From Bedellia somnulentella (lineage: Eukaryota > Arthropoda > Insecta > Lepidoptera > Bedelliidae): a stretch of 64,000 nt of DNA. Positions 4,773 through 57,586 of the stretch are shown piece by piece. The translations under genes were made by a program, and so were the position numbers. Position 1 is the stretch's first letter, and each line of letters starts with the position of its first letter. A model generated the notes under the pieces. That model did not search any database. It saw nothing but the letters and a program-made list of their open reading frames with translations, and was not told the DNA's origin. The stretch is taken from contig OY755178.1 of NCBI GenBank assembly GCA_963576735.1, positions 3,038,001 to 3,102,000 on the forward strand, written 5' to 3'.

Positions 4773-4853
4773 GTAGATTTTATCAATCTACTCTAATTCA
4801 AGAGTAACATAATATCTTAGATAAAAAAAAACACTTTGTTAGTTAATAAAGTT

Positions 4854-4928
4854 TTTATTAGGTGTTTTTTTATAAATATTTAAATTAAAACTGCTACTGG
4901 AAAAGGTGGCTGTAGTCATGGGTTAAAT
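4854..4928 (-). other. Candidate 3' exon (exon 4) and poly(A) signal of peptide gene copy 1
   Basis: After an acceptor (GTTACAG) a short exon-like block starts at 4928. It ends at a conserved TTTCCA|GTA, and an AATAAA signal (minus strand, 4859-4854) follows. The same block recurs in all copies, including the old copy (57,498-57,532), so it is part of the ancestral gene. With the stop in exon 3 it would be 3' UTR. Whether it is ever coding is open. Confidence 0.5.
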
Positions 4929-5159
4929 CTGTAACAAAAAAAATATTTCAAAAATCAGTAGAGAGTAGGGCAAAATTACGTATATTGTATGTTGTTAGTT
5001 ATGCTTCATTGCTGACAATTGTTTTCCAGCAAAAATTAAGGCTTAAGAGATACTTCAGCATTCGTATCAAGAGCAACAGTTTTCCTGAAAAGGCAGACTT
5101 ATAAAGTAATTCATGGAATTGTTTGATGTATGCATATATATATGCGAACATCTCTTACA

Positions 5160-5250
5160 TATAATATTAATATATATATATATATATATATCTAATATAT
5201 ATTTAATATAAATATATATTTAAATATATATATTTATATTCAAATTTACA
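5160..5250. repeat. AT microsatellite in intron 3
   Basis: A long (AT)n tract lies between exon 3 and exon 4. Its length differs in every unit: it is short in unit 2 (about 11,235) and long in units 5 (about 33,805-33,860) and 6 (about 39,280-39,540). Confidence 0.9.
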
Positions 5251-5362
5251 TTTGTTATATAAAGTTTTCTTGATAAAGTTATTTTTTTGTATGTTATGAT
5301 TTCATAAATAAACTTACACATTTTTTTATTCTTTTTCTATCTTACATCTGAGAAAACTAAAG

Positions 5363-5821
5363 CTATGATGAGCCGGCAGGAGGAGAGTTGTGTTGACCTG
5401 CAACATGTTAATTATAATGACGATCCAGCAAATAAATTAGCCTAGAACAGTTAGAGATATAAGTGCATAAATACAAAATAGGATTCAAAGAATACCGGGA
5501 TCCATTCCATACAAGAAGGGCTCTGAAGCGTCAGCGATCATTGCCTGGGACATCTGCAAATAAAAATTACATGAAATATGGAAGTTGTATGAAAATGTTC
5601 CTATTTGTTATGCCTCTACATTCCTATACTACTTCCGTCTGAAGTGTTATCTTGTTTCGTTCATTTAACATCCTTATTAGGTAGTTCAATAATTCTTATA
5701 TTTTTTTATTTGAAGGAAAGCTTCAAAAGTTTTTCTCCAGATATAATGTAACGCGATGTTAATACGATGTGATACTCACAGCTAAGAGAGCGAAGACGAA
5801 TGAGACTAAGAAGCACTTCAT
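5363..5821 (-). CDS. Small secreted peptide gene, copy 1 (three coding exons)
   Basis: Coding exons are 5821-5780 (MKCFLVSFVFALLA), 5553-5496 (MSQAMIADASEPFLYGMDP plus one base) and 5397-5363 (completes G, then QHNSPPAGSS and TAG). The splice sites are GTGAGT with TTTGCAG and GTATTC with TTGCAG. The product is 44 residues. The first 20 or so form a hydrophobic signal peptide, and ADA|SE is a plausible cleavage site, leaving about 21 residues rich in Pro, Gly and Ser with no Cys. The start is the first ATG after a TATA box at 5891-5884. Intron 2 lacks the 5 bp ATACC duplication that the other copies have just inside its donor, so the donor reads GTATTC, not GTATGG. I do not recognise the family. 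Secretion is inferred and the function is unknown. Confidence 0.75.
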
Positions 5822-5883
5822 TTTTAATATTGTTGACTGTTGTACGGTTTAACGATAGATAATTAAATGCTCCTAGAAATGTG

Positions 5884-6054
5884 CTTTTATATGCATCTCC
5901 ACACGCAGGAACAGCTCTCGTGGTAATTAGGCATTTAGTTCCGATTTTCCAGTCTTTTGTCATTTCCGCGAGTCGATATGCAATTGCAGTTGAAGGCCGT
6001 TTCTTGACGTCAACTTCAATCTATGCATAGCAATCCATTATCTAAATAATATTT
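5884..6054 (-). promoter_or_regulatory. Core promoter and proximal block of peptide gene copy 1
   Basis: TATAAAAG (5891-5884) lies 63 bp upstream of the ATG. Further upstream are GGAAAATC (5950-5943), an 8 of 10 match to a Rel/kappaB half pattern, and the perfect CRE/ATF palindrome TGACGTCA (6005-6012). The whole block is kept in units 2, 3, 4, 6 and 7 and in plus-strand copy 8. The boxes are visible; a role in induced or tissue-specific expression is inference. Confidence 0.6.
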
Positions 6055-11380: not shown

Positions 11381-11831
11381 CTATGATGAGCCGGCAGGAG
11401 GAGAGTTGTGTTGACCTGAAACATGTTAATTATAATGACGATCCAGCAAATAAATTAGCCTAGAACAGTTAGAGATATAAGTGCATAAATACAAAATAGG
11501 ATTCAAAGAATACCATACCGGGATCCATTCCATACAAGAAGGGCTCTGAAGCGTCAGCGATCATTGCCTGGGACATCTGCAAATAAAAATTGTAAGTTGT
11601 ATGAAAATGTTCCTATTTGTTATGCCTCTACATTCCTACTACTTCCGTCTGAAGTGTTATCTTGTTTTGTTCATTTAACATCCTTATTAGGTAGTTCAAT
11701 AATTCTTATATTTTTTTATTTGAAGGAAAGCTTCAAATATTTTTCTCCAGATATAATGTAACGCGATGTTAATACGATGTGATACTCACAGCTAAGAGAG
11801 CGAAGACGAATGAGACTAAGAAGCACTTCAT
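11381..11831 (-). CDS. Small secreted peptide gene, copy 2
   Basis: Exons are 11831-11790, 11576-11519 and 11415-11381, with TATA box at 11901-11894 and TGACGTCA at 12015-12022. The predicted peptide is identical to copy 1. The intron 2 donor here is GTATGG. Intron 1 has lost about 17 bp close to the exon 2 acceptor, but the pyrimidine-AG context is retained. All splice sites remain GT-AG, so the copy looks intact. Confidence 0.75.
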
Positions 11832-16240: not shown

Positions 16241-16272
<32 letters not shown>

Positions 16273-16411
16273 TTTAAATATATATATTTATATTCAAATT
16301 TACATTTGTTATATAAAGTTTTCTTGATAAAGTTATTTTTTTATGTTATAATTTCATAAATAAACTTACACATTTTTATTCTTTTCTATCTTACATCTGA
16401 GAAAACTAAAG

Positions 16412-16873
16412 CTATGATGAGCCGGCAGGAGGAGAGTTGTGTTGACCTGAAACATGTTAATTATAATGACGATCCAGCAAATAAATTAGCCTAGAACAGT
16501 TAGAGATATAAGTGCATAAATACAAAATAGGATTCAAAGAATACCATACCGGGATCCATTCCATACAAGAAGGGCTCTGAAGCGTCAGCGATCATTGCCT
16601 GGGACATCTGCAAATAAAAATTACATGAAATATGGAAGTTGTATGAAAATGTTCCTATTTGTTATGCCTCTACATTCCTACAACTTCCGTCTGAAGTGTT
16701 ATCTTGTTTCGTTCATTTAACATCCTTATTAGGTAGTTCAATAATTCTTATATTTTTTTATTTGAAGGAAAGCTTCAAATAATTTTCTCCAGATATAATG
16801 TAACGCGATGTTAATACGATGTGATACTCACAGCTAAGAGAGCGAAGACGATTGATACTAAGAAGCACTTCAT
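16412..16873 (-). CDS. Small secreted peptide gene, copy 3
   Basis: Exons are 16873-16832, 16607-16550 and 16446-16412, with TATA at 16943-16936 and TGACGTCA at 17057-17064. The signal peptide reads MKCFLVSIVFALLA (Phe8 to Ile), a change shared only with copy 6. The mature part is identical to the other array copies. The splice sites are intact. Confidence 0.75.
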
Positions 16874-18619
16874 TTTTAATATTGTTGACTGTTGTACGGT
16901 TTAACGATAGATAATTAAATGCTCCTAGAAATGTGCTTTTATATGCATCTCCACACGCAGGAACAGCTCTCGTGGTAATTAGGCATTTAGTTCCGATTTT
17001 CCAGTCTTTTGTCATTTCCGCGAGTCGATATGCAATTGCAGTTGAAGGCCGTTTCTTGACGTCAACTTCAATCTATGCATAGCAATCCATTATCTAAATA
17101 ATATTTGGACACGCACCTAGAATTGATGAATAGAGTAGCTTACATACATACATATGCTCACGGCTATGAATGTCTACATAGGGGTAGCCAGAGCTTCGGA
17201 TTAAGAAATTCGTCAGCTACTTTTGGAAGTTGTGAGGGGATAAGTTGTAAAACAAAGTATTTTGGTGATTAATCTCCAACCGCATCGAAAATATGTCACT
17301 TTCATGATTTTCAGCTTATCTTAGGAATTATTTTCAACTTTTTAGCTAAATATGTTTTTTAGTTTTTTAAACAATGTATGTTTACAAGGACAAAATTTAT
17401 GGTAAATAAATCATTCAAGTTTATTCTTAACATTGTTGTTACATTCGTTTTCCGCAAAAATCCCCTCGTGTTTAGATTTGTAACGATTAAACTTTTTGAT
17501 AAAATGCATCTTTTCTTTGAGACAAAATTACGGCCACTTATGTGTTGGCTTTTGCGCTTAATAGAAATAATGATGATTTATCTTTAATTACGTTTTAGTA
17601 CTAATAAATAAAGGATAATTAAAGGAAAGAAAAATTTCGACACTAGTGGGGATCCAACCCGTGACCTCCGAGTTTCCTTTACTTATTAGTAATAATCCCC
17701 ACCTGAGATTTTTATGAACACAAATCATTCCAATTATACGTTTTATTTGTTTTTAAATATGCAATTATCTATTGTTTTTTGTTCGTTTTCTTGTATGGGA
17801 GTCATATCATTAATTTTAAATGAATATTTAACCTCTACCGAAGAGTCGGCTTCGACAAGAGCTCCGGGTAAAACTGCCAAGAACTTTTCTTTTCTGAATT
17901 GTTAAATTGCTTCATCTTCTTTTAGGTTGGTATAATTAGTTTTTCTTATAAATTTAAAATTATAAATTTGAGTCCTGCAGTGGCTTATTCTGCTAAAGTG
18001 GTTTTTGTATTATCGACTTCCATCTTAGTTTGAATTATTGAATTAATTGATTGAATTCTAACTTTAACTGATGAATTACTGTGAAGCATTTTTCAAGTGG
18101 TGTTCTGATATTTTTACAGGTGGGATGAGGGATGACCCGATAATATTTTCAAATAACTTTACCATATTATCAGTAACTTGCCTTTAAACTATTATCTTAT
18201 TCGTTTCAATTGCAGATCTGATTTGAAAACTCTCCCATGTGGTCAGAGGTAATGCAGTCATTAACAATCTGGCCTGAATAATCACAATTGCAATAAATAT
18301 AATCTAAAAAGTTGAAGAGCTCTAGGTAATTCGGGCTGGCTCATTAAGTACTTTAAAAAGATTGTAAAAACTGCAACCTCCTTTGAGCTACGGGAAACCA
18401 TACGAAAAGCATCTTCCATCGCTGCTTCAAAGATATGAAAAATTTAATTGTGAATGTAATTGTTTAGTTCGACGCAGAATGTTGATTTCATCATGTTCTT
18501 CAATAGAAAGTCTACAAATAACTTTTTTTTCTTTAAATCTAATTTCTACATTTAATAGGATCTTCCCAAGCAGTACATTATGGTCTCTCTGTTAAAACAA
18601 CTGCCAACAGTGTACTTCA

Positions 18620-21025
18620 TACATACAAACACACATATTCTAACGCTGTTAGTTACCATTGGGGTAGGCAGAGACTATCGATCGCCACTTTGTACGATCC
18701 TGACAAACCTCTCTAGCTTCATTTACATCCAGCAATCTTTTCATACAATGCACTTTCATTCTTCGTACTTCGGACACCTGCCTTTTTGAGCACATTTTCT
18801 ATTTGATCCAAATTTGTCCTCCCAGGTTGTCCTCTACTAACATTACCTTCCACATTGGATCTATAGATCTCTTTGACCAATTTACTGCCATCCACCCTAT
18901 CTATATGCCCAAGCCATCTCAACATCTCTTTTTCTATCTTTCTTACAATATCATCTTTTACACCACACCTTCCACGATTCACGTCATTCCTCACACGATC
19001 ACATAACCTCACATTACAAACTTTTCTGAGGGACCTCATTTCTACTGCATTCACTCTGCTTTCATGCTTCTTCTACCACACCCAATATTCACTGCCATAC
19101 ATAAGCGTAGGAACAAGAACAGCATCAATCACAGCCATTCGGGCCTTTTCAGACACAGATTGATTATAGAATAGAATAACTCTTTATTGTACATCAAACA
19201 CAAATTTACATTAGAAATTATCCTACAGTTTACAATGAGGTACAATCGGCGGTCTTATCGCTAAAAGCGATCTCTTCCAGACAACCTTTGGAAGGTGAGA
19301 TCGGTAAACTAGTTATCTGGGTAGATGCACAAAACAAGCTTACTTTAAAACTAACTCATTCAATTGAAATAATAAATAATAACATAAATATTAATTACAC
19401 AAAATAATATAATATTACACATATATGAACACACATACATGAGAATATCCAGTGCTCCATTTACCGTATTACCCTTTTTTACTCTTCTTTCAATGTCTTC
19501 ATCACAATTTCCATCCCTAGTAAACAAACTTCCCAGATATACGAACTCTTTCACTTGTTCCACTTTCTTACCATTGATCTCAATCACGCATTCAGTCATA
19601 TTCTCCTCTGTCTCAAAAACCATGGTTTTGGTTTTATCTACATTCACTCTCATTCCTTTTCTTTCAAACGACGCCCATGCAATATTCATCATCTCTTGCA
19701 ACTCTTCAACCGAAGATGCAAGTAACACTTGATCATCAGTATATAAGAGGCATTTGATGACGAATCCACCCATTCTCAGTCCATAATCACTTTCTGTCTG
19801 TGTTTTCCCTGTTTATTCCCACACATGCACTAGAATCCTCATATAGTGATACCAACGCAAGTATAAGTTGGCTCCTCAAACCGAACTTGGATAACACCTC
19901 CCACAAATACTTCCTTACCACCCTATCATACGATTTAGAAATCTTTGAAGGTGCAATACACCTTTCGGTTCTTGGCTAAGAACATTTCAGTGATGCTCCT
20001 TACAGAGAATATTTGATCCATACATCCCATTCCTTTTCTAAATCCTGCTTGCACATTCCGTATTTTCTCATCAGTTTCATTCATCACTCTTTCAATCAAT
20101 ACCTTTGCATACAATTTACCGACAACACTGAGTAGGCTGATTCCGCGGTAGTTTTTAGCTTCCTGGTGTGACCCTTTTGCTTTATATAAGGGCACAATTA
20201 CTGCCCTACACCAATCTCGTGTTACTTTACCACTTGACCAGCACTTTTGAAAAAGGAAGTACAGCCAGGAAGCCACCAACCCCTTACCAGCCCTCAGCAT
20301 TTCGATACTTATCCTGTCATACCCTGCCGCTTTCCCTGCTTTTATACTTTTCAATGCCTTCATTACTTCTTCACAGAGGCCCCATTATCCTCATATGCCA
20401 AGAGCCTCCAATATGTTAAAGACGGCTATGGTGATATCACGAGAAAGTGACCTGTACCAACGTTAGTGCCCCTATAGACTCTGGTGTCAACAACCTTTGC
20501 TCATAGCCTTTCATCCACTATCACAAAATCTATCATACTCCTCTCGCTTTCCCTTTGTCTAGCATAGATATGGATATCTTTGTGTTCCAACAACGTGTTC
20601 GTAACACAAAGATTCCTCCCCAAACATACATCAATCACTTTATCGCCATTCTCGTTCACTCTTTTATCACTAAACTTTTCTAAAACTCTTTCACAACCGT
20701 TGCGTGACACCCCAACCCAACCATTAAAATCTCCTTACATAACAGTTCTCTCATTCTGATCACACCGATTCGCAACATCGTCTGACAAATTCCAAAACTC
20801 CTCCCTCTTGGATAGTGATCTGGACATGTCCGGAGCATACACGCAAATTATCCGCATCCGGACAAGCCCTACCTTCACCTTTACCCATAGGAGCCTTGGA
20901 CTCACACATGCATAATCTTTCATGCACTTAGCCATCCTTTCAGATATTAGATAGAAGTCCCACTCCTTGGCAAGCTCTGTCACTCTCGGCAACTCCCGAC
21001 CAGATAGCTGTAAATGGGCCAAGTT
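18620..21025 (-). mobile_element. RTE-like LINE remnant, unit 4
   Basis: A 142-residue RT piece (20,363-19,935) runs from KALKSIKAGKAAGYDRISIEML to CMDQIFSVRSITEMFLAKNRK. Endonuclease pieces follow at 21,022-20,735 and 20,710-20,501, separated by a stop (TAA where the neighbours read through MLGDF). Confidence 0.85.
19164..19439 (-). mobile_element. Jockey/CR1-like LINE 3' tail, unit 4
   Basis: Same position as in unit 1. The (ATTCT)n tail has the short form also seen in units 2 and 7. Confidence 0.75.
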
Positions 21026-21204
21026 GTGAAACCTCTTTTTCTTTGCGCTTAATTATATTAAATGAAAAACTTTAATTTAGTACATGTAGATTGTAATCAA
21101 TTGCATGCTTTTGCATCCTCAAATGTATGTGAACGTGAGTATGTATGTATGTGTGTGTGTGTTTGAATGTATGTTTGTGTGTGTGTTCGCGATTGTGTAT
21201 AATA

Positions 21205-21560
21205 CATACATATGCTCACGCCATTAGTTCCCATTCGGGTAGGCAGAGACTATTGATCGCCACTTCGTACGATCCTGCCAAACCTCTCTAGCTTCGTTTA
21301 CATCCATCAATCTTTTCATGCATGCTCTCTTATTCTTCATACGTCGGACGCCAGCCTTTTTGAGCACACTCTCAATTTGGTCCAAGTGTGTTCTCCGTGG
21401 TCGTCCTCTACTAACATTACCATCCACACTAGCTCTATAGATCCCTTTTACCAATTTTTTATCATCCATCCTCTCTATGTGCCCAAACCATCTTTCACAC
21501 CACACTTTTCACGAATAACACTATTTCTCACTCGGTCACATAATCTAACATTACAATAAT
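21205..21560 (-). mobile_element. Second RTE-like 3' end, unit 4
   Basis: Encodes WFGHIERMDDKKLVKGIYRA through SAYPNGN. The GT simple repeat at its left is shorter than in units 1 and 2. Confidence 0.8.
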
Positions 21561-21707
21561 TTTTTAAATTGTGTATATACAGTCTATTTTGAAAATCCTA
21601 GGAGTCACCAAATATTTAGCATTGTATTTCTAATATCATCTCAGTCTGATCATAATTTAAAGTAAGTAACCAGGGTAAAAGTTCACATTTATCTAGTATT
21701 TTATTAA

Positions 21708-23345: not shown

Positions 23346-24099
23346 TAGAATTATAAAGGTGAGGGCCTAAAAATGTAAAATAGTTTTGACCACATTTTGT
23401 GATTAATTTGGGTTTTACAAAAACAATGTCACGTCGCCGTTTGAGATTAAGACGATTTGATGATACATCTGGTTTCAACACTGTCAATAAATTGTACAGC
23501 TTTCTTACTGTCAAAACTTCACAAAAAGAATAAGAGTAGATTTTATCAATCTACTCTAATTCAAGAGTAATATAATATCTTAGGTAAAAAAAACACTTTG
23601 TTAGTTAATAAAGTTTTTATTAGGTGTTTTTTTATAAATATTTAAATTAAAACTGCTACTGGAAACGGTGGCTGTAGTCATGGGTTAAATCTGTAACAAA
23701 AAAAAATATTTCAAAAATCAGTAGAGAGTAGGGCAAAATTACGTATATTGTATGTTGTTAGTTATGCTTCATTGCTGACAATTGTTTTCCAGCAAAAATT
23801 AAGGCTTAAGAGATACTTCAGCATTCGTATCAAGAGCAACAGTTTTCCTGAAAAGGCAGACTTATAAAGTAATTCATGGAATTGTTTGATGTATGCATAT
23901 ATATATGCGAACATCTCTTACATATAATACGAGTATTAATATATATATATATAAATTTGAATATATATATTTATATTCAAATTTACATTTGTTATATAAA
24001 GTTTTCTTGATAAAGTTATTTTTTTGTATGTTATGATTTCATAAATAAACTTACACATTTTTTTATTCTTTTTCTATCTTACATCTGAGAAAACTAAAG

Positions 24100-24561
24100 C
24101 TATGATGAGCCGGCAGGAGGAGAGTTGTGTTGACCTGAAACATGTTAATTATAATGACGATCCAGCAAGTAAATTAGCCTAGAACAGTTAGAGATATAAG
24201 TGCATAAATACAAAATAGGATTCAAAGAATACCATACCGGGATCCATTCCATACAAGAAGGGCTCTGAAGCGTCAGCGATCATTGCCTGGGACATCTGCA
24301 AATAAAAATTACATGAAATATGGAAGTTGTATGAAAATGATCTTATTTGTTATGCCTCTACATTCCTACAACTTCCGTCTGAAGTGTTATCTTGTTTCGT
24401 TCATTTAACATCCTTATTAGGTAGTTCAATAATTCTTATATTTTTTTATTTGAAGGAAAGCTTCAAATATTTTTCTCCAGATATAATGTAACACGATGTA
24501 AATACGATGAGATACTCACAGCTAAGAGAGCGAAGACGAATGAGACTAAGAAGCACTTCAT
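24100..24561 (-). CDS. Small secreted peptide gene, copy 4
   Basis: Exons are 24561-24520, 24295-24238 and 24134-24100, with TATA at 24631-24624 and TGACGTCA at 24745-24752. The peptide is identical to copy 1. Intron 1 carries a few private substitutions just after the donor. The splice sites are intact. Confidence 0.75.
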
Positions 24562-33971: not shown

Positions 33972-34411
33972 CTATGATGAGCCGGCAGGAGGAGAGTTGT
34001 GTTGACCTGAAACATGCCATAAATTAGCCTAGAACAGTTAGAGATATAAGTGCATAAATACAAAATAGGATTCAAAGAATACCATACCGGGATCCATTCC
34101 ATACAAGAAGGGCTCTGAAGCGTCAGCGATCATTGCCTGGGACATCTGCAAATAAAAATTACATGAAATATGGAAGTTGTATGAAAATGTTCCTATTTGT
34201 TATGCCCCTACATTCCTACTACTTCCGTCTGAAGTGTTATCTTGTTTCGTTCATTAAACATCCTTATTAGGTAGTTCAATAATTCTTATATTTTTTTATT
34301 TGAAGGAAAGCTTCAAATATTTTTCTCCAGATATAATGTAACGCGATGTTAATACGATGTGATACTCACAGCTAAGAGAGCGAAGACGAATGAGACTAAG
34401 AAGCACTTCAT
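33972..34411 (-). CDS. Small secreted peptide gene, copy 5 (reduced promoter)
   Basis: Exons are 34411-34370, 34145-34088 and 34006-33972, with TATA at 34481-34474. The peptide is identical to copy 1. Intron 2 is only 81 bp, having lost about 23 bp near the acceptor side, although the TTTCAG acceptor is present. The proximal upstream block is also shortened (see the promoter entry). Confidence 0.75.
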
Positions 34412-39320: not shown

Positions 39321-39324
39321 TAAT

Positions 39325-39490
39325 ATAGGCTTGCCCCCTATCACGTGAGTACACTGTCTAAGCAAAACGTGGGTACCTTCTCTGGAAACTAGATGGCGCT
39401 TGCCATGTGAGTTCAGGAGTATTGGTACCTCTGCCAACCCCTTCGGGGATAAACGGCGTGAACGTTTATGTTATGTTTTATGTTATGTTA
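39325..39490 (+). mobile_element. SINE private to unit 6, inserted in the AT tract
   Basis: A 5'-truncated copy of the tRNA-derived SINE seen complete at 57,587 and 62,307. It starts at GGCTTGCCCCCTATCACG and ends in repeated TTATG. Unit 3, otherwise matching here, lacks it, so it arrived after the unit 3/unit 6 duplication. It belongs to the same variant as 61,487. Confidence 0.85.
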
Positions 39491-39654
39491 TATATATATA
39501 TATATATAATATATATTTAAATATATATATTTATATTCAAATTTACATTTGTTATATAAAGTTTTCTTGATAAAGTTATTTTTTTATGTTATAATTTCAT
39601 AAATAAACTTACACATTTTTATTCTTTTCTATCTTACATCTGAGAAAACTAAAG

Positions 39655-40116
39655 CTATGATGAGCCGGCAGGAGGAGAGTTGTGTTGACCTGAAACATGT
39701 TAATTATAATGACGATCCAGCAAATAAATTAGCCTAGAACAGTTAGAGATATAAGTGCATAAATACAAAATAGGATTCAAAGAATACCATACCGGGATCC
39801 ATTCCATACAAGAAGGGCTCTGAAGCGTCAGCGATCATTGCCTGGGACATCTGCAAATAAAAATTACATGAAATATGGAAGTTGTATGAAAATGTTCCTA
39901 TTTGTTATGCCTCTACATTCCTACAACTTCCGTCTGAAGTGTTATCTTGTTTCGTTCATTTAACATCCTTATTAGGTAGTTCAATAATTCTTATATTTTT
40001 TTATTTGAAGGAAAGCTTCAAATAATTTTCTCCAGATATAATGTAACGCGATGTTAATACGATGTGATACTCACAGCTAAGAGAGCGAAGACGATTGATA
40101 CTAAGAAGCACTTCAT
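39655..40116 (-). CDS. Small secreted peptide gene, copy 6
   Basis: Exons are 40116-40075, 39850-39793 and 39689-39655, with TATA at 40186-40179 and TGACGTCA at 40300-40307. It has the same Phe8 to Ile signal-peptide variant as copy 3. The SINE insertion in its third intron roughly doubles the distance from exon 3 to the conserved exon 4 block. Confidence 0.75.
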
Positions 40117-41862
40117 TTTTAATATTGTTGACTGTTGTACGGTTTAACGATAGATAATTAAATGCTCCTAGAAATGTGCTTTTATATGCATCTCCACACG
40201 CAGGAACAGCTCTCGTGGTAATTAGGCATTTAGTTCCGATTTTCCAGTCTTTTGTCATTTCCGCGAGTCGATATGCAATTGCAGTTGAAGGCCGTTTCTT
40301 GACGTCAACTTCAATCTATGCATAGCAATCCATTATCTACATAATATTTGGACACGCACCTAGAATTGATGAATAGAGTAGCTTACATACATACATATGC
40401 TCACGGCTATGAATGTCTACATAGGGGTAGCCAGAGCTTCGGATTAAGAAATTCGTCAGCTACTTTTGGAAGTTGTGAGGGGATAAGTTGTAAAACAAAG
40501 TATTTTGGTGATTAATCTCCAACCGCATCGAAAATATGTCACTTTCATGATTTTCAGCTTATCTTAGGAATTATTTTCAACTTTTTAGCTAAATATGTTT
40601 TTTAGTTTTTTAAACAATGTATGTTTACAAGGACAAAATTTATGGTAAATAAATCATTCAAGTTTATTCTTAACATTGTTGTTACATTCGTTTTCCGCAA
40701 AAATCCCCTCGTGTTTAGATTTGTAACGATTAAACTTTTTGATAAAATGCATCTTTTCTTTGAGACAAAATTACGGCCACTTATGTGTTGGCTTTTGCGC
40801 TTAATAGAAATAATGATGATTTATCTTTAATTACGTTTTAGTACTAATAAATAAAGGATAATTAAAGGAAAGAAAAATTTCGACACTAGTGGGGATCCAA
40901 CCCGTGACCTCCGAGTTTCCTTTACTTATTAGTAATAATCCCCACCTGAGATTTTTATGAACACAAATCATTCCAATTATACGTTTTATTTGTTTTTAAA
41001 TATGCAATTATCTATTGTTTTTTGTTCGTTTTCTTGTATGGGAGTCATATCATTAATTTTAAATGAATATTTAACCTCTACCGAAGAGTCGGCTTCGACA
41101 AGAGCTCCGGGTAAAACTGCCAAGAACTTTTCTTTTCTGAATTGTTAAATTGCTTCATCTTCTTTTAGGTTGGTATAATTAGTTTTTCTTATAAATTTAA
41201 AATTATAAATTTGAGTCCTGCAGTGGCTTATTCTGCTAAAGTGGTTTTTGTATTATCGACTTCCATCTTAGTTTGAATTATTGAATTAATTGATTGAATT
41301 CTAACTTTAACTGATGAATTACTGTGAAGCATTTTTCAAGTGGTGTTCTGATATTTTTACAGGTGGGATGAGGGATGACCCGATAATATTTTCAAATAAC
41401 TTTACCATATTATCAGTAACTTGCCTTTAAACTATTATCTTATTCGTTTCAATTGCAGATCTGATTTGAAAACTCTCCCATGTGGTCAGAGGTAATGCAG
41501 TCATTAACAATCTGGCCTGAATAATCACAATTGCAATAAATATAATCTAAAAAGTTGAAGAGCTCTAGGTAATTCGGGCTGGCTCATTAAGTACTTTAAA
41601 AAGATTGTAAAAACTGCAACCTCCTTTGAGCTACGGGAAACCATACGAAAAGCATCTTCCATCGCTGCTTCAAAGATATGAAAAATTTAATTGTGAATGT
41701 AATTGTTTAGTTCGACGCAGAATGTTGATTTCATCATGTTCTTCAATAGAAAGTCTACAAATAACTTTTTTTTCTTTAAATCTAATTTCTACATTTAATA
41801 GGATCTTCCCAAGCAGTACATTATGGTCTCTCTGTTAAAACAACTGCCAACAGTGTACTTCA

Positions 41863-44268
41863 TACATACAAACACACATATTCTAACGCTGTTAGTTACC
41901 ATTGGGGTAGGCAGAGACTATCGATCGCCACTTTGTACGATCCTGACAAACCTCTCTAGCTTCATTTACATCCAGCAATCTTTTCATACAATGCACTTTC
42001 ATTCTTCGTACTTCGGACACCTGCCTTTTTGAGCACATTTTCTATTTGATCCAAATTTGTCCTCCCAGGTTGTCCTCTACTAACATTACCTTCCACATTG
42101 GATCTATAGATCTCTTTGACCAATTTACTGCCATCCACCCTATCTATATGCCCAAGCCATCTCAACATCTCTTTTTCTATCTTTCTTACAATATCATCTT
42201 TTACACCACACCTTCCACGATTCACGTCATTCCTCACACGATCACATAACCTCACATTACAAACTTTTCTGAGGGACCTCATTTCTACTGCATTCACTCT
42301 GCTTTCATGCTTCTTCTACCACACCCAATATTCACTGCCATACATAAGCGTAGGAACAAGAACAGCATCAATCACAGCCATTCGGGCCTTTTCAGACACA
42401 GATTGATTATAGAATAGAATAACTCTTTATTGTACATCAAACACAAATTTACATTAGAAATTATCCTACAGTTTACAATGAGGTACAATCGGCGGTCTTA
42501 TCGCTAAAAGCGATCTCTTCCAGACAACCTTTGGAAGGTGAGATCGGTAAACTAGTTATCTGGGTAGATGCACAAAACAAGCTTACTTTAAAACTAACTC
42601 ATTCAATTGAAATAATAAATAATAACATAAATATTAATTACACAAAATAATATAATATTACACATATATGAACACACATACATGAGAATATCCAGTGCTC
42701 CATTTACCGTATTACCCTTTTTTACTCTTCTTTCAATGTCTTCATCACAATTTCCATCCCTAGTAAACAAACTTCCCAGATATACGAACTCTTTCACTTG
42801 TTCCACTTTCTTACCATTGATCTCAATCACGCATTCAGTCATATTCTCCTCTGTCTCAAAAACCATGGTTTTGGTTTTATCTACATTCACTCTCATTCCT
42901 TTTCTTTCAAACGACGCCCATGCAATATTCATCATCTCTTGCAACTCTTCAACCGAAGATGCAAGTAACACTTGATCATCAGTATATAAGAGGCATTTGA
43001 TGACGAATCCACCCATTCTCAGTCCATAATCACTTTCTGTCTGTGTTTTCCCTGTTTATTCCCACACATGCACTAGAATCCTCATATAGTGATACCAACG
43101 CAAGTATAAGTTGGCTCCTCAAACCGAACTTGGATAACACCTCCCACAAATACTTCCTTACCACCCTATCATACGATTTAGAAATCTTTGAAGGTGCAAT
43201 ACACCTTTCGGTTCTTGGCTAAGAACATTTCAGTGATGCTCCTTACAGAGAATATTTGATCCATACATCCCATTCCTTTTCTAAATCCTGCTTGCACATT
43301 CCGTATTTTCTCATCAGTTTCATTCATCACTCTTTCAATCAATACCTTTGCATACAATTTACCGACAACACTGAGTAGGCTGATTCCGCGGTAGTTTTTA
43401 GCTTCCTGGTGTGATCCTTTTGCTTTATATAAGGGCACAATTACTGCCCTACACCAATCTCGTGTTACTTTACCACTTGACCAGCACTTTTGAAAAAGGA
43501 AGTACAGCCAGGAAGCCACCAACCCCTTACCAGCCCTCAGCATTTCGATACTTATCCTGTCATACCCTGCCGCTTTCCCTGCTTTTATACTTTTCAATGC
43601 CTTCATTACTTCTTCACAGAGGCCCCATTATCCTCATATGCCCAGAGCCTCCAATATGTTAAAGACGGCTATGGTGATATCACGAGAAAGTGACCTGTAC
43701 CAACGTTAGTGCCCCTATAGACTCTGGTGTCAACAACCTTTGCTCATAGCCTTTCATCCACTATCACAAAATCTATCATACTCCTCTCGCTTTCCCTTTG
43801 TCTAGCATAGATATGGATATCTTTGTGTTCCAACAACGTGTTCGTAACACAAAGATTCCTCCCCAAACATACATCAATCACTTTATCGCCATTCTCGTTC
43901 ACTCTTTTATCACTAAACTTTTCTAAAACTCTTTCACAACCGTTGCGTGACACCCCAACCCAACCATTAAAATCTCCTTACATAACAGTTCTCTCATTCT
44001 GATCACACCGATTCGCAACATCGTCTGACAAATTCCAAAACTCCTCCCTCTTGGATAGTGATCTGGACATGTCCGGAGCATACACGCAAATTATCCGCAT
44101 CCGGACAAGCCCTACCTTCACCTTTACCCATAGGAGCCTTGGACTCACACATGCATAATCTTTCATGCACTTAGCCATCCTTTCAGATATTAGATAGAAG
44201 TCCCACTCCTTGGCAAGCTCTGTCACTCTCGGCAACTCCCGACCAGATAGCTGTAAATGGGCCAAGTT
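41863..44268 (-). mobile_element. RTE-like LINE remnant, unit 7
   Basis: RT piece 43,606-43,178 and endonuclease pieces 44,265-43,978 and 43,953-43,744, with the same internal stop as unit 4. The Jockey tail insertion is at 42,408-42,681. Confidence 0.85.
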
Positions 44269-44444
44269 GTGAAACCTCTTTTTCTTTGCGCTTAATTATA
44301 TTAAATGAAAAACTTTAATTTAGTACATGTAGATTGTAATCAATTGCATGCTTTTGCATCCTCAAATGTATGTGAACGTGAGTATGTATGTATGTGTGTG
44401 TGTGTTTGAATGTATGTTTGTGTGTGTGTTCGCGATTGTGTATA

Positions 44445-44805
44445 ATACATACATATGCTCACGCCATTAGTTCCCATTCGGGTAGGCAGAGACTATTGAT
44501 CGCCACTTCGTACGATCCTGCCAAACCTCTCTAGCTTCGTTTACATCCATCAATCTTTTCATGCATGCTCTCTTATTCTTCATACGTCGGACGCCAGCCT
44601 TTTTGAGCACACTCTCAATTTGGTCCAAGTGTGTTCTCCGTGGTCGTCCTCTACTAACATTACCATCCACACTAGCTCTATAGATCCCTTTTACCAATTT
44701 TTTATCATCCATCCTCTCTATGTGCCCAAACCATCTTTCACACCACACTTTTCACGAATAACACTATTTCTCACTCGGTCACATAATCTAACATTACAAT
44801 AATTT
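44445..44805 (-). mobile_element. Second RTE-like 3' end, unit 7
   Basis: Same fragment as in unit 4 with identical predicted residues. Confidence 0.8.
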
Positions 44806-44950
44806 TTTAAATTGTGTATATACAGTCTATTTTGAAAATCCTAGGAGTCACCAAATATTTAGCATTGTATTTCTAATATCATCTCAGTCTGATCATAATT
44901 TAAAGTAAGTAACCAGGGTAAAAGTTCACATTTATCTAGTATTTTATTAA

Positions 44951-46583
44951 TCCATCCATACTAATATTATAAATTGGAAAGTGAGTTTGTTTGTTTGTTT
45001 ATTTGTGCCGCTTTCACGCTGTAACTACTGAACCGATTGCTTTGAAATTTTGCAGACGTATAGTTAGAAGTCCAGATTAAATAATAGGATACTTTCATCC
45101 CGGAAAAAATATATTCCCGAGGGAAAACTAAAATATTGTTTGCTAGCTGGGTTGATTGGAGATGGCGCTCTGTGTAGTTTAAAACAAGGTTATATATTGC
45201 AAACGAATATAAACATGTAAATTTAGAAGCTAAATGATACGGTAATGTATCCTTGAAAACGAGGAATTCCTGAGGGATGACGTACAATTTGTTTTATCGT
45301 CTAAACTGTTTTTTCACATCTACTTATCCTGAAATAACTAATTAAATAAACGAATTACTAATTGGTATAAGTATTTACGTTACGTTAGTTCTTGAGGTAT
45401 GCAATAGATGGGTGTTTAAGCCGTGGTATCGATGTTTTTTAAGATACGTAAGAAGTGGAATATCTTGCGCTTTAACCTGTAGCTCATACAATTACTTGGT
45501 GCACTTTTCGAATCATTTACTTACTTGCTGTTTTATCTTTATTTACTATTTTACATTTGACATTGAATTGTGGATTTTAGCTCTCGACATTGGTAGGGTA
45601 TAAAAATGCAGGATTATACAGAGGGAGCTAGTAAATTTAATTGTTTATCAATAGTAAGGCTATAAGAAAATAATGGGTATTCAAAATTTGCCGTCAAAGT
45701 TAGCGTCTCTGTGGCGTAGCGGTAAATCTAACCTCTATGAACATTCCAGAGACCCGGGATCAAAACTCAAAGGACACAAGCTTTTAGTAAAAAAAAAGTG
45801 GTTCTGTTAGCTTAGAATAATAGCAAGAACTGTCGCAACATGACATAGGATATCATTTATCTCGGACAATCCCAATATTCCCGAGCAATCTCTGCTGCAA
45901 ACTCACCCACCGTCACCAACGGTCAGTGTAGGGGGCAGCACCCACCGGGCCTCCTCCGCCCCGCAGCACCAAACTACTATCCGTCAAAGACTTTCGCGAT
46001 TGAACATTACAATTAAAACAACTATTATAATAGTTATATATTTATAATAGTTATATTATTATAAAACTAAACCCATGTTATAACACGCGATTAAAGATTC
46101 GAAAATCAATAGTTACTATCCGTACTAATACGAACATAGTAACTCGAAGATAGAAACTTGGTACAAAATGTTTGGTCTCATGATTCTTATCATTTTATGG
46201 CACTAAGGGGTTAAAATAGCAAATGAAAGTTACTGCAGAGATTTTTGACATTTCTGTATTTAGAAACTTGATACTTGGTGTGATTGACTGTTATAACCAC
46301 TACAAAAAGGAATTTATGAAATTCATCCATCAATCATTGATGAGTATATATACCGTAACAACCATAAGTCCCAAAAAAGGTAGCCATAGCTTCGGAGAGA
46401 GTAATTCTTCATCCACTTTTGGAAGTTGAATGGGGAAAAGGTCAAATAAAGGATTTTAGTGATGGGTATCGAACTGCATCGCTGAACAATCTTTTAAAAA
46501 GCCTCAATGTCCTTTATATTTTTTATATAATTTGGATGCAAAAAAAATACGCAACGCGGACGTAGTCGCGGGCAAAAAGCTAG
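44951..46583 (+). mobile_element. Helitron, unit 7
   Basis: 1,633 bp, TC start, hairpin and CTAG end, with the same target as units 4 and 5 and no nested LINE. Diagnostic sites (CGGGCCTCCTCCGCC, TATATTTATAATAG, and no AAATT repeat in the SINE part) agree with unit 5 against unit 4. Confidence 0.9.
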
Positions 46584-47334
46584 TAGAATTATAAAGGTGA
46601 GGGCCTAAAAATGTAAAATAGTTTTGACCACATTTTGTGATTAATTTGGGTTTTACAAAAACAATGTCACGTCGCCGTTTGAGATTAAGACGATTTGATG
46701 ATACATCTGGTTTCAACACTGTCAATAAATTGTACAGCTTTCTTACTGTCAAAACTTCACAAAAAGAATAAGAGTAGATTTTATCAATCTACTCTAATTC
46801 AAGAGTAATATAATATCTTAGGTAAAAAAAACACTTTGTTAGTTAATAAAGTTTTTATTAGGTGTTTTTTTATAAATATTTAAATTAAAACTGCTACTGG
46901 AAACGGTGGCTGTAGTCATGGGTTAAATCTGTAACAAAAAAAATATTTCAAAAATCAGTAGAGAGTAGGGCAAAATTACGTATATTGTATGTTGTTAGTT
47001 ATGCTTCATTGCTGACAATTGTTTTCCAGCAAAAATTAAGGCTTAAGAGATACTTCAGCATTCGTATCAAGAGCAACAGTTTTCCTGAAAAGGCAGACTT
47101 ATAAAGTAATTCATGGAATTGTTTGATGTACGCATATATATATGCGAACATCTCTTACATATAATATTAATATATATGTATATATATATATTTAAATATA
47201 TATATTTATATTCAAATTTACATTTGTTATATAAAGTTTTCTTGATAAAGTTATTTTTTTGTATGTTATGATTTCATAAATAAACTTACACATTTTTTTA
47301 TTCTTTTTCTATCTTACATCTGAGAAAACTAAAG

Positions 47335-47796
47335 CTATGATGAGCCGGCAGGAGGAGAGTTGTGTTGACCTGAAACATGTTAATTATAATGACGATCCAG
47401 CCAATAAATTAGTCTAGAACAGCTAGGGATATAAGTGCATAAATACAAAATAGGATTCAAAGAATACCATACCGGGATCCATTCCATACAAGAAGGGCTC
47501 TGAAGCGTCAGCGATCATTGCCTGGGACATCTGCAAATAAAAATTACATGAAATATGGAAGTTGCATGAAAATGTTCCTATTTGTTATGCCCCTACATTC
47601 CTACTACTTCCGTCTGAAGTGTTATATTGTTTCGTTCATTTAACATCCTTATTAGGTAGTTCAATAATTCTTATATTTTTTTATTTGAAGGAAAGCTTCA
47701 AATATTTTTCTCCAGATATAATGTAACGCGATGTTAATACGATGTGATACTCACAGCTAAGAGAGCGAAGACGAATGAGACTAAGAAGCACTTCAT
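47335..47796 (-). CDS. Small secreted peptide gene, copy 7
   Basis: Exons are 47796-47755, 47530-47473 and 47369-47335, with TATA at 47866-47859 and TGACGTCA at 47980-47987. The peptide is identical to copy 1. Private substitutions occur in intron 2 and the 5' UTR (AACAAAAGATAA) but not in coding exons. This is the last minus-strand copy before the inversion. Confidence 0.75.
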
Positions 47797-49390
47797 TTTT
47801 AATATTGTTGACTGTTGTACGGTTTAACAAAAGATAATTAAATGCTCCTAGAAATGTGCTTTTATATGCATCTCCACACGCAGGAACAGCTCTCGTGGTA
47901 ATTAGGCATTTAGTTCCGATTTTCCAGTCTTTTGTCATTTCCGCGAGTCGATATGCAATTGCAGTTGAAGGCCGTTTCTTGACGTCAACTTCAATCTATG
48001 CATAGCAATCCATTATCTAAATAATATTTGGACACGCACCTAGAATTGATGAATAGAGTAGCTTACATACATACATATGCTCACGCCTATGAATGTCTAC
48101 ATAGGGGTAGCCAGAGCTTCGGATTAAGAAATTCGTCAGCTACTTTTGGAAGTTGTGAGGGGATAAGTTGTAAAACAAAGTATTTTGGTGATTAATCTCC
48201 AACCGCATCGAAAATATGTCACTTTCATGATTTTCAGCTTATCTTAGGAATTATTTTCAACTTTTTAGCTAAATGTGTTTTTCAGTTTTTTAAACAATGT
48301 ATGTTTCATAATATCTTATTCACGGACAAAATTTATGGTAAATAAATCATTCAAGTTTATTCTTAACATTGTTGTTACATTCGTTTTCCGCAAAAATCCC
48401 CTCGTGTTTAGATTTGTAACGATTAAACTTTTTGATAAAATGCATCTTTTCTTTGAGACAAAATTACGGCCACTTATGTGTTGGCTTTTGCGCTTAATAG
48501 AAATAATGAAGATTTATCTGTAATTACGTTTTAGTACTAATAAATAAAGGATAATTAAAGGAAAGAAAAATTTCGACACTAGTGGGGATCCAACCCGTGA
48601 CCTCCGAGTTTCCTTTACTTATTAGTAATAATCCCCACATGAGATTTTTATGAACACAAATCATTCCAATTATACGTTTTATTTGTTTTTAAATATGGAA
48701 TTATCTATTGTTTTTTGTTCGTTTTCTTGTATGGGAGTCATATCATTAATTTTAAATGAATATTTAACCTCTACCGAAGAGTCGGCTTCGACAAGAGCTC
48801 CGGGTAAAATTGCCAAGAACTTTTCTTTTCTGAATTGTTAAATTGCTTCATCTTCTTTTAGGTTGGTATAATTCGTTTTTCTTATAAATTTAAAATTATA
48901 AATTTGAGTCCTGCAGTGGCTTATTCTGCTAAAGTGGTTTTTGTATTATCGATTTCCATCTTAGTTTGAATTATTGAATTAATTTATTGAATTCTAACTT
49001 TAACTGATGAATTACTGTGAAGCATTTTTCAAGTGGTGATCTGATATTTTTACTTATGACCCGATAATATTTTCAAATAACTTTACCATATTATCAGTAA
49101 CTTGCCTTTAAACTATTATCTTATTCGTTTCAATTGCAGATCTGATTTGAAAACTCTCCCATGTGGTCAGAGGTAATGCAGTCATTAACAATCTGGCCTG
49201 AATAATCACAATTGCTATAAATATAATCTAAAAAGTTGAAGAGCTCTAGGTAATTCGGGCTGGCTCATTAAGTACTTTAAAAAGATTGAAAAAACTACAA
49301 CCTCCTTTGAGCTACGGGAAACCATACGAAAAGCATCTTCCATCGCTGCTTCAAAGATATGAAAAATTTAATTGTGAATGTAATTATTTA

Positions 49391-51802: not shown

Positions 51803-52267
51803 ATGAAGTGCTTCTTATTCTCATTCGTCTTCGCTCTCTTAGATGTGAGTATCTCATCGTATTTACATCGTGTTACATTATATCTGAAAAAAAAATGTAT
51901 GAACCTTTCCTTCAATTTGAAAAAGATTTAGAATTATTGAACTACCTTAAAAGGGGTCTTAAATGAACAAAACAACATGACAATTCAGACGGAAGTTCTA
52001 GGAATGCAGAGGCATAACTCATAGGAATATTTTCATACAACTTCCATATTCTATGTAATTTTTATTTGCAGATGTCCCAGGCAATGATCGCTGACGCTTC
52101 AGAGCCCTTCTTGTATGGAATGGATCCCGGTATGGTATTCTCTGAATCTTATTTTGTATTTATGCACTTATATTTCTAACTGTTCTAGGCTAATTTATTT
52201 GCTGGACCGTCATTATAATTAACATGTTTCAGGTCCACACAACTCTCCTCCAGCCGGCTCATCATAA
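51803..52267 (+). CDS. Small secreted peptide gene, copy 8 (plus strand)
   Basis: Exons are 51803-51844 (MKCFLFSFVFALLD), 52072-52129 (MSQAMIADASEPFLYGMDP) and 52233-52267 (G, then PHNSPPAGSS, TAA). The splice sites are GTGAGT/TTTGCAG and GTATGG/TTTCAG. Compared with the array it has Val6 to Phe, Ala14 to Asp and Gln to Pro in exon 3. An Asp at the end of the hydrophobic core may weaken the signal peptide. The exon 4 block lies at 52,871-52,901, followed by AATAAA at 52,928 and 52,940. Confidence 0.7.
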
Positions 52268-53110: not shown

Positions 53111-53279
53111 AGCCGCGGCAGTTGATGAAAAAATAGTATCTAAATAATTATTGTTAGATCCGCTTTAATATTGCTCTACCCTAATAAATGCGTTATGGTA
53201 AAAAACATAAAATTTTAAACATTTTTGTTTCAGTAAGTTAGTAACACAGCCATACATATATACTCAAGGCTATAAACCC

Positions 53280-53700: not shown

Positions 53701-53736
53701 GTATGTGATACTTGATAATTGATGATACTATGATAC

Positions 53737-54260: not shown

Positions 54261-54261
54261 T

Positions 54262-54725: not shown

Positions 54726-55350
54726 AATTATTTACTTCAACGCAATATATTTCAACATGTTGTTCAACAGAAAGAATGATTAATCATGATATAAAAACAT
54801 CTTTTGCAGAATGGGCTACTGCAGGGACCAAAATGTATAAGGAAAAACTAATTATACCAAAAAAACAAGATGATGTAATTCATTAATTCAGAAAAGAAAC
54901 GTTCTTCCGAAAAGAAAAGAAATTTCCATTTAAAATAATTATATGACTCCCATACAAGAAAACGATCAAAATTAACAACAATTTTAAGAACAAACTTGAA
55001 TGATTATTTTTAACAAAATTTTAGTCTGGGAATAAGAGATTATGAGACAAACATAGTTTAAAAAACGAGAATTTACGCTTTTGAAGCACACCCAATATAA
55101 GCTGAAAATCATGAAAACGCGTGGGGAGCTCAATGCCATATTTTCAATGCGGTTGGAGATTAATCACCAAAAACCTTTGTTTTACAACTTATCCCCTGAC
55201 AACTTTCAAAAGTGGCTGACGAATTTCTTATTCCGTATCTCTGGCTACTCCTCCTATGTAGACATTCATAGCCGTGAGTATATGTAGGTATGTATATTAT
55301 ATTATCTGTGGTATGTATGCTACTCTATTCATCAACTCTAGATGCGCGTC
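54726..55350. repeat. Inverted, diverged unit spacer upstream of copy 9
   Basis: Reverse complement of unit positions about 1-800, lacking the 350-690 part. It includes the inverted SINE remnant at 55,133-55,300. It is the proper upstream flank for the plus-strand gene at 55,568. Confidence 0.75.
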
Positions 55351-55399
55351 GAAATATTATTTAGATAATGGAATGCGCCATATAGAATTAAGTTGACTT

Positions 55400-55505
55400 T
55401 AAGAAATGTCCTGCAACTAGCGGAAATGACAATAGACTGGAAAATCGGAACTAAACGCTTAATTACCATGAGAGCTGTTCCTGCGTGTAGAGATGCATAT
55501 AAAAG
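55400..55505 (+). promoter_or_regulatory. Promoter of old copy 9
   Basis: TATAAAAG (55,498-55,505) and the GGAAAATC motif (about 55,439-55,446) are conserved. The CRE palindrome is degraded to TGACTTTA (about 55,394-55,401). Confidence 0.55.
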
Positions 55506-55567
55506 CACATTTCTAGGAGCATTTAATTATCTTTCGTTAAACCGTACAACAGTAAACATTATTAAAA

Positions 55568-57140
55568 ATGAAGTGCTTCTTAGTCTCATTCGTCTTCGCC
55601 CTCTTGGCTGTGAGTATCTCATCGATTTTAAATAATTGTCTTTATGTTTGAAGAGAAATTCATATTTTTCCCTACTACGTGGTGGTACAAGGGACTTAGA
55701 ATGAACGAACCAAGAATATAATATAGAAATTAATAAATTCATAGGCCCCAAAAACGTTTGAGTCATACATTATCACACCTACTATGTTTATTATTGCCCC
55801 AGGAACAACACTACTTTCTTTCTCAGAATTTTTTTACCCATGCATTACCGACATTTCTGTCTGAGTACTCCGAGTAGTTTTCATGTTTCTTAGAGCCTTT
55901 TTTACGTGTTCGTATAGTTTTCCTCTTTCCAATTACATCTGTGTGCATTTACACATCAATCAATGATAGTGAGTATCAAAATTATACGATCCGTATAGTA
56001 CAGCGTCATTATACATATGGACTGAAGTAGACGAAATCGACGCTAATGAACATACATACATACATACATATACTCACCGCTATAAATCCCTAAAAGGGGT
56101 AGCCAGAGCTGAGAAATTAGAAATTTCTCAGCCACTTTTGGAAGTTGAGTGGGGAAAAGATGGTAGAATAAAGGTTGTTGGTGATGGGTCTCCAACCGCA
56201 TCGCCCAAAAATCCCTTAAAAAGCCCCAATACCGTTGACTAACGGTATTGGGGTAAGCTGTGTAGAGTCGGCTTAGAATAGCACTACCCCATTTCTTCCG
56301 GTAGGAGTACGTAACAGGCGACTAACAGTATTAGGGCTTTTAAGGGAATTTTGGGCGATGCGGTTGGAGACCCATCACCAACAACCTTTATTTCACCATC
56401 TATTGCCCACGCAACTTCCAAAAGTGGCTGAGGAATTTCTAATTCCCTACCTCTGGCTACAAGGGATTTATAGCCGTGAGTATATGTATATATGTATTTG
56501 CAGACTAACCGGTGTAAATGATGTAAAAACTAAATTTCATCTGCGATACGACGATCTTTACTATATACAAAGTAAACAAGCAATAATATTGAACATTGTG
56601 GAAAATTCATACAAGAGCCAAAATATGGATTTAGAAAACACAATTTCATACAACTCAGTCGTGTCATTTTTATTTGCAGATGTCCCAGGCAATGATCGCC
56701 GATGCTTCAAAACCCTCCTTGTATGGATTGGATCCCGGTATGGTATTTCCTAAACCCCCTAACGGATTTATTTATACTACTTTTTGTTTTCTTCCATCTT
56801 CAATACGAAGACGAATGTCGTTTATCAAACGTATACTTACTTAGCCAGAACTTCAGAATTAAAAACTCAAACTCCTTTAAAGATATTATAGGGAAATAAA
56901 TATAAAATAAAGTATGTTTCGTGAACGATCTACAGCCACATCATCCATAACTACATCCATAAATTGCTTTATTAAATTCCCCATAACCCGAAGTCACCTC
57001 ATAGGACACGCGTGCGAAGCAACTACGCTTATATTTTGTGGTTTGTAATTGTTTTTAATAATTATGATATAATATTATATAAAATATATTATTTATAATT
57101 TTCAGGTCAGCACGACTCTCCTCCTGCCGGCTCATCGTAA
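55568..57140 (+). CDS. Small secreted peptide gene, copy 9 (oldest, long intron 1)
   Basis: Exons are 55568-55609 (MKCFLVSFVFALLA), 56680-56737 (MSQAMIADASKPSLYGLDP) and 57106-57140 (G, then QHDSPPAGSS, TAA). Intron 1 is 1,070 bp because of two SINEs and intron 2 is 368 bp. Relative to the array the exons carry four replacements (Glu to Lys, Phe to Ser, Met to Leu, Asn to Asp) and six synonymous changes, including the stop codon. The introns are largely unalignable. The exons are thus conserved far better than the introns, which supports the gene model. The exon 4 block follows at 57,498-57,532. Confidence 0.75.
56045..56240 (-). mobile_element. SINE in intron 1 of copy 9, minus orientation
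   Basis: The (CATA)n tail at left is followed by AAAAGGGGTAGCCAGAGC and GGGTCTCCAACCGCATCGCC, up to AATACCG. Confidence 0.85.
56252..56495 (+). mobile_element. SINE in intron 1 of copy 9, plus orientation
   Basis: Full-length copy starting GCTGTGTAGAGTCGGC and ending GCCGTGAGTATATGTATATATG. With the preceding copy it makes a head-to-head inverted pair. Confidence 0.85.
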
Positions 57141-57497
57141 TTTTATTGCTCTCAAATGTCAGTTGCTCTCAATTGACAAAATGTGTAAATTTATAATATC
57201 ATGTTCAGCTGCTAGTTTCGCTCCAACCTATAACAGCCCTAGTATCAAACACAGGGGCCTAACATAAAACATTTGATATAGCTTGTCCTAACGTAATTTA
57301 AAGTATATGAAAACTCACATGAGTTACTTTATAGGTCTATCTCTTTTCGATAACAGTTACGTAAGTCTGGATATGAAAACTAAAAGCACCTATTAAACCT
57401 TAACTGATTATCAGAAATGTCAAGAGAGTGGTTGAACAATTTAGTTTATTTGGCTTTATTTTGTACCAAGTTTTTAAACATATATTTTTTATTTCAG

Positions 57498-57532
57498 TTC
57501 CATCCAAGTCGAGTCCACAGCCACCGTTTCCA
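57498..57532 (+). other. Exon 4 block of copy 9
   Basis: Starts after TATTTCAG and ends at TTTCCA|GTAACT. If joined directly to exon 2 (phase 1) it would read V, PSKSSPQPPFP, an open proline-rich sequence. If exon 3 ended at the local GTAATT (57,137) it would continue SIQVESTATVS. Otherwise it is 3' UTR. Confidence 0.4.
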
Positions 57533-57586
57533 GTAACTAATTTAATTTCAAAACAAAAATGAAAATCTTTTAAAAATATTATAACA

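What the first reader, a model, noticed from the sequence alone, without database searches (positions are those of the whole stretch)
4840..57540. Expanded family of a tiny three-exon secreted-peptide gene hidden in a retrotransposon-laden tandem array
Nine copies (seven minus, two plus) share a short signal-peptide exon, a 58-base exon and a 35-base exon with GT-AG splice sites and a TATA box. Exons this small are easily missed by gene finders, and conventional annotation would show only LINE debris here. The product is a 44-residue precursor with a Cys-free, Pro/Gly/Ser-rich mature part of about 21 residues that I cannot place in a family. High copy number with near-identical peptides suggests a dosage-driven role such as immunity, venom-like or reproductive secretion. 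That last point is inference.
Basis: partly seen in the sequence, partly recalled or inferred. Interest (0 to 1): 0.88.

Follow-up and report, generated by a model that had tools for sequence, protein, structure and literature searches.

The report
Tandem family of tiny secreted-peptide genes
A probable moth or butterfly genome carries ten intact copies of a very small three-exon gene for a likely secreted peptide of about 21-26 residues, with signs of purifying selection and no relative found, but what the peptide does is still unknown.

Summary
Nine copies lie in the window (seven minus, two plus), each with exons of 42, 58 and 35 bp, GT-AG introns and an intact 44-codon frame. A tenth copy lies just left of the window; three whole-genome searches find ten copies, all at this locus, plus a gene-less promoter remnant elsewhere.

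The gene is supported by more than copy number. The most diverged copy (55568-57140) has much longer, mostly unalignable introns but intact exons with 7 synonymous and 4 non-synonymous changes (dN/dS 0.14; simulation P = 0.005). Exons 2 and 3 do not vary among eight tandem copies, whose introns vary at 27 of 329 columns.

Young duplication of LINE-bearing units explains the seven near-identical window copies. The product should be a secreted, acidic, Cys-free linear peptide. No relative was found in the protein set, Pfam or PDB. Acidic charge and no kB match argue weakly against a classical antimicrobial peptide; immune, glandular and reproductive roles stay open. This is an orphan gene family of a known kind, not a new mechanism.

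The parts
5363..5821 (-). copy c1: exon 1 5821-5780, exon 2 5553-5496, exon 3 5397-5363; 44-aa precursor
11381..11831 (-). copy c2: exons 11831-11790, 11576-11519, 11415-11381; same peptide as c1
16412..16873 (-). copy c3: exons 16873-16832, 16607-16550, 16446-16412; F8I in the signal peptide
24100..24561 (-). copy c4: exons 24561-24520, 24295-24238, 24134-24100; same peptide as c1
33972..34411 (-). copy c5: exons 34411-34370, 34145-34088, 34006-33972; same peptide as c1; 50 bp missing upstream of the conserved promoter block, intron 2 only 81 nt
39655..40116 (-). copy c6: exons 40116-40075, 39850-39793, 39689-39655; F8I
47335..47796 (-). copy c7: exons 47796-47755, 47530-47473, 47369-47335; same peptide as c1
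51803..52267 (+). copy c8, an older copy in the other orientation: exons 51803-51844, 52072-52129, 52233-52267; V6F, A14D, Q35P; dN/dS against c1 0.84, may be relaxed
55568..57140 (+). copy c9, the most diverged copy: exons 55568-55609, 56680-56737, 57106-57140; introns 1070 and 368 nt; intact frame
5822..5969 (-). conserved promoter block of c1 (TATAAA at -70, reverse-strand AGATAA at -41); 148-bp blocks before all ten copies match a composite query block at 96-98% identity
1..6054 (.). first tandem unit in the window (gene plus downstream LINE remnants in the same orientation); rearranged versions recur to about 50.6 kb
59768..60517 (-). ORF of a TMEM104-type amino-acid transporter (Aa_trans), the right-hand neighbour

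Best explanation
This is a working, lineage-restricted family of at least ten protein-coding genes for a small secreted peptide. Each copy has its own TATA promoter and short leader. Its transcript would be spliced to a 135-nt reading frame, and the 44-residue precursor would enter the secretory pathway. Signal peptidase then cuts, probably after SQA (residue 18), less likely after MIA or ADA, to release a 21-26-residue linear, acidic, disulfide-free peptide with a P-F-L-Y-G-M-D-P-G-Q-H-N-S-P-P-A-G-S-S tail. Two older copies (c8, c9) and a young array of eight in the other orientation were made by duplication; shared LINE sequence in the units gave long homology for unequal exchange, which raised gene dose. 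The most likely use is as an abundant extracellular effector, in a gland or reproductive secretion or in haemolymph. Shown here: gene anatomy, a signature of purifying selection on the coding exons, a conserved promoter block, and repeated recent duplication. Inferred: expression, secretion and cleavage site, the exchange mechanism, the dosage advantage, lineage restriction and the extracellular role.
For: All ten copies are intact. c1 against c9, stop codon left out: 7 synonymous and 4 non-synonymous changes, dS 0.28, dN 0.04, ratio 0.14; 11 random changes give a mean of 2.7 synonymous and P(>=7) = 0.005, and 37% of such sets gain a stop. Among eight tandem copies, exons vary at 2 of 135 columns against 27 of 329 in introns (Fisher one-sided P = 0.003); exons 2+3 at 0 of 93 (P = 0.0009). 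Within the 650 bp upstream, the best block shared by c1, c8 and c9 runs from about -150 to +50 (90-98% per 50 bases); the next 50 bases, in intron 1, fall to 56-80%. Hydrophobic stretch from about residue 4 to 15. Tandem-unit matches over 700 bp are 94-99.7% identical, including a 9.9-kb repeat at 99.4%; matches to the c8 block are 88-90%.
Against: No RNA or protein evidence was available. No homologue outside this genome was found, so conservation between species is untested. The selection test rests on 11 changes in 132 coding bases. Absence of exon indels among the tandem copies alone is not significant (expected 1.6, P(0) = 0.19). Related copies are not independent, and gene conversion could also keep exons alike. 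c8 shows dN/dS 0.84 against c1 with an aspartate near the end of its hydrophobic stretch, so not every copy need work. Nothing here identifies a tissue, receptor or role.
Confidence: 0.8

Rival explanations
1. Bomanin-like immune effector: a Toll- or Imd-induced short haemolymph peptide from a gene cluster, acting in resistance to infection.
For: Short secreted peptides from a cluster of similar genes, as in the Drosophila 55C cluster with ten of twelve Bomanin genes (passages of PMC4411088).
Against: No cysteine in the mature part, so no CXXC Bom motif; acidic mature part; no kB match in the 220 bp upstream of four copies.
Confidence: 0.25
2. Gland, silk or reproductive secretion peptide made in bulk, for which copy number serves output.
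For: Shared core promoter, recent copy-number gain, low-complexity Pro/Gly/Ser-rich acidic tail; the step from these to a gland is inference.
Against: No tissue data; no gland-specific promoter motif was tested.
Confidence: 0.4
3. Peptide hormone or neuropeptide precursor.
For: Short precursor with a signal-like leader.
Against: No dibasic cleavage site in any of ten copies; ten copies, where hormones are usually single-copy (recalled).
Confidence: 0.04
4. Relic exons riding in a segmental duplication, with no current function.
For: Seven window copies are so young that intact frames alone prove little; c8 has dN/dS 0.84; a gene-less promoter remnant exists on C3.
Against: c9 shows constraint on the exons, P = 0.005; exons 2+3 vary at 0 of 93 columns against 27 of 329 in introns.
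Confidence: 0.08
5. A shrunken lustrin-type cysteine-rich repeat that lost its three cysteines.
For: The best protein hit outside the cluster, C17:438116-438184, is a lustrin repeat (PF14625, E 8.6e-7); the last 19 residues align without gaps, three Cys facing Y29, S38 and S44; 0 of 5000 shuffles of the 30-residue query score as high.
Against: It was picked from a whole genome at E = 0.79, so the shuffle test overstates it; the three other PF14625 matches found in this genome (one below the Pfam cut-off) score 2, 7 and 11 against the tail where this one scores 51; Pfam gives no family for the peptide at E <= 1.
Confidence: 0.06

Closest known systems
Drosophila Bomanins (55C cluster)
   Same: Short secreted peptides from a cluster of similar genes, ten at 55C (PMC4411088, passages only)
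   Different: Short-form Bomanin mature part is a 16-17-residue CXXC-containing Bom motif; here no cysteine, acidic, three tiny exons, no kB match
Aphid bicycle genes
   Same: Orphan secreted proteins in an expanded family (abstract starts in a search listing); very small exons (recalled)
   Different: Bicycle proteins are rapidly evolving and have saposin-like folds (listing); here 44 residues, no cysteine in the mature part, three exons, little change between copies
Lustrin cysteine-rich repeat (PF14625)
   Same: Gapless 19-residue resemblance of the tail to one repeat on C17
   Different: All three facing cysteines absent; no Pfam match; the three other PF14625 matches found in the genome are unlike it

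Membership tests
Bomanin | 16-residue Bom motif with CXXC | tested here: not met
   No cysteine after residue 3 in any of ten copies
Bomanin | Toll-dependent induction | not testable with these tools
   No expression data; no kB match in 220 bp upstream of c1, c5, c8, c9, weak evidence
Bomanin | Clustered genes for short secreted peptides | tested here: met
   Ten copies within about 58 kb; secretion itself is inferred from the hydrophobic leader
Cationic antimicrobial peptide | Net positive mature peptide | tested here: not met
   Charge -2 to -3 for 21-, 23- and 26-residue forms of the common sequence; c9, with K for E, is less acidic but not positive (read from its sequence)
Neuropeptide precursor | Dibasic cleavage sites | tested here: not met
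   No KR, RR, KK or RK in any of ten copies
Lustrin repeat PF14625 | Pfam model match with conserved cysteines | tested here: not met
   0 Pfam families at E <= 1 for two variants
Any family in Pfam, PDB or the 5.8-billion protein set | Detectable homologue | tested here: not met
   The protein search needs three shared 5-residue words; the set holds insect proteins, but whether it holds spliced peptides this short is unknown

The most novel reading that the evidence does not exclude
A lineage-restricted, possibly de novo, secreted peptide with a mode of action unlike known insect effectors, whose dose was raised at least eightfold very recently by LINE-assisted unequal exchange while promoter and mature peptide were held fixed: a natural dosage experiment with a peptide that ordinary gene finders may skip.
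Probability: 0.25. Interest if true: 0.6.

Novelty: new member of a known kind. Interest (0 to 1): 0.42.

Why it matters
Very small multi-exon secreted-peptide genes are easily missed (established knowledge, not tested here), and this locus shows that a selection test between paralogues can support one without RNA data. If expression confirms it, it adds an uncharacterised amplified peptide family to Lepidoptera and a clean case of recent copy-number growth with a fixed product. The anatomy is nevertheless of a familiar kind: clustered short secreted peptides.

Tried and rejected
Homology: one peptide and one four-row alignment against 5.8 billion proteins, no candidate; Pfam none for two variants; PDB none at E <= 10; Rfam none in the window at gathering scores; a degenerate exon-2 pattern in viral contigs, none. 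Peptide fragments as text in papers: 0 papers; shorter fragments gave 8 papers, all for the string MIADAS, with unrelated titles. Topic searches were judged by listings, titles and starts of abstracts. Two lepidopteran papers listed, a Galleria immune repertoire (PMC3224240) and a Helicoverpa salivary set (PMC3203145), were not opened, so I cannot say that they hold no relative. Only PMC4411088 was opened, passages only. Supplementary files could not be searched.

Lustrin origin: followed because the best protein hit outside the cluster was a lustrin repeat; kept only as a minor rival. LINE-encoded origin of the gene: rejected; the LINE ORFs are separate from the exons, and the long shared stretch of c8 with the array is the gene block; c9 shares the gene block, its 5' region and scattered repeats. 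C3 promoter copy as an eleventh gene: rejected; 375 bp at 95% to the c8 upstream region, ending at the TATA region, no exon match in the 20 kb read around it. Exon indel absence as proof of constraint: not significant alone. Structure prediction was not tried: the spliced peptide is not a letter-for-letter translation of window DNA, and a 44-residue orphan would give little.
Full report
Observation. BLASTN of one unit and of each exon against the window finds nine copies with all three exons; a six-frame peptide scan shows no further copy. Exon lengths (42, 58, 35), GT...AG introns and intact 44-codon frames hold in all nine. Exon 1 ends in phase 0 inside the leader; exon 2 ends after one base of a glycine codon. 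Intron 1 begins GTGAGTAT and ends ATTTGCAG in all ten copies. An AATAAA-type signal lies 32-33 nt after the stop in the seven tandem window copies, but none lies within 150 nt in c8 or c9.

Place. The window is C9:3038001-3102000 of a 549-Mb genome in 486 contigs. The array runs past the left edge: copy c0, intact and with the common peptide, lies at C9:3037767-3037306. No further exon match lies in the 40 kb left or 20 kb right that I took. The protein search at E <= 0.001 gave ten places, all in the cluster; the search with exons 2 and 3 at E <= 10 gave the same ten and one weak place on C17, E = 0.79; the promoter-plus-exon-1 DNA search at E <= 10 gave the same ten and a promoter remnant on C3. 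The tool calls its counts of large families lower bounds, and the exon-2 DNA search did not complete. Right of the cluster are a TMEM104-type transporter ORF and an ORF of SRP68. The best match of the transporter ORF that names an organism, among the 120 listed of 621, is Operophtera brumata, 81% over 75% of the query. That supports Lepidoptera; the species is not known to me.

Is it a gene? Among eight young tandem copies, exons vary at 2 of 135 columns and introns at 27 of 329 (one-sided P = 0.003); exons 2+3 vary at 0 of 93 (P = 0.0009). Related copies are not independent and gene conversion could contribute, so these P values are guides. The stronger test is c9. Its introns are 1070 and 368 nt long, against 213-227 and 81-103 in the others, with only pieces that align (for example 164 of 226 bases of c1 intron 1 placed, 145 matching, in a permissive gapped alignment), yet its exons keep the frame. 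Against c1 there are 7 synonymous and 4 non-synonymous differences, stop codon left out (dS 0.28, dN 0.04); random placement of 11 changes gives 7 or more synonymous in 0.5% of 20,000 trials and gains a stop in 37%. Against this reading: c8 has 1 synonymous and 3 non-synonymous changes against c1 (ratio 0.84), the test is small, and lack of exon indels is not significant by itself.

Promoter. The block from about -150 to +50 is 90-96% alike per 50 bases between c1 and c9, 90-98% between c1 and c8 and 90-92% between c8 and c9; the next 50 bases of intron 1 drop to 56%, 80% and 66%. This is not the only alike stretch: -450 to -251 is 90-94% between c1 and c9, which I read as a shared repeat since c8 lacks it, and -200 to -151 is 96% between c1 and c8. 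The four copies scanned (c1, c5, c8, c9) share TATAAA at -70, a reverse-strand AGATAA at -41 and ATGCATAT at -75; c1 and c8, but not c5 and c9, have TGACGTCA at -191; none matches the two kB patterns used. The motif definitions are recalled.

How it was made. Successive minus-strand start codons are 5.0-9.9 kb apart. In the array the genes are followed by LINE remnants, reverse transcriptase and endonuclease ORFs in the same orientation. A 9.9-kb stretch is repeated at 99.4% (16246-26167 and 39489-49390), and c3 and c6 differ by 0.1% over the gene block, so duplication has spanned more than one unit and is recent. That LINE sequence served as the exchange homology is inference.

What it may do. 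The precursor has a hydrophobic leader and no dibasic site. The candidate mature forms are 21-26 residues, acidic, Pro/Gly/Ser-rich and Cys-free (cleavage judged by the -3,-1 rule, no predictor run). No relative was found. Bomanins are the nearest in organisation, but the Bom motif is missing. I favour an abundant gland, reproductive or haemolymph effector whose dose was raised by copy number; only the gene anatomy, its duplication and the selection signature are shown.

Verdict. A real orphan peptide gene family, probably unrecognised (no annotation of this genome was seen); the kind is familiar, the sequence is new to what I could search, and the role is open.

Noticed in passing
L010:5900-9008 (C9:3033900-3037008), left of the window: A 3.1-kb hAT-like DNA transposon (named so from its ends and 8-base target duplication, recalled) with a 715-aa open ORF bearing a BED zinc finger, inserted downstream of copy c0; it looks young.
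   Followed up: partly
L027:876-1264, minus strand (C3): A 375-bp piece 95% like the upstream region of copy c8, cut at the TATA region, with no exon match in the 20 kb around it: a gene-less remnant on another contig.
   Followed up: yes
56047-56500: Intron 1 of copy c9 contains a fold-back repeat; similar pieces are seen at about 60960-61220 and 63290-63430 (by eye).
   Followed up: no
30461-32512: A second LINE with two long ORFs (491 aa with RVT_1, and 185 aa, not scanned), plus strand, lies in the array between c4 and c5.
   Followed up: no
L039:3840-5798: A 652-aa open frame on C17 that by eye resembles the LINE family whose broken copies fill the array.
   Followed up: no
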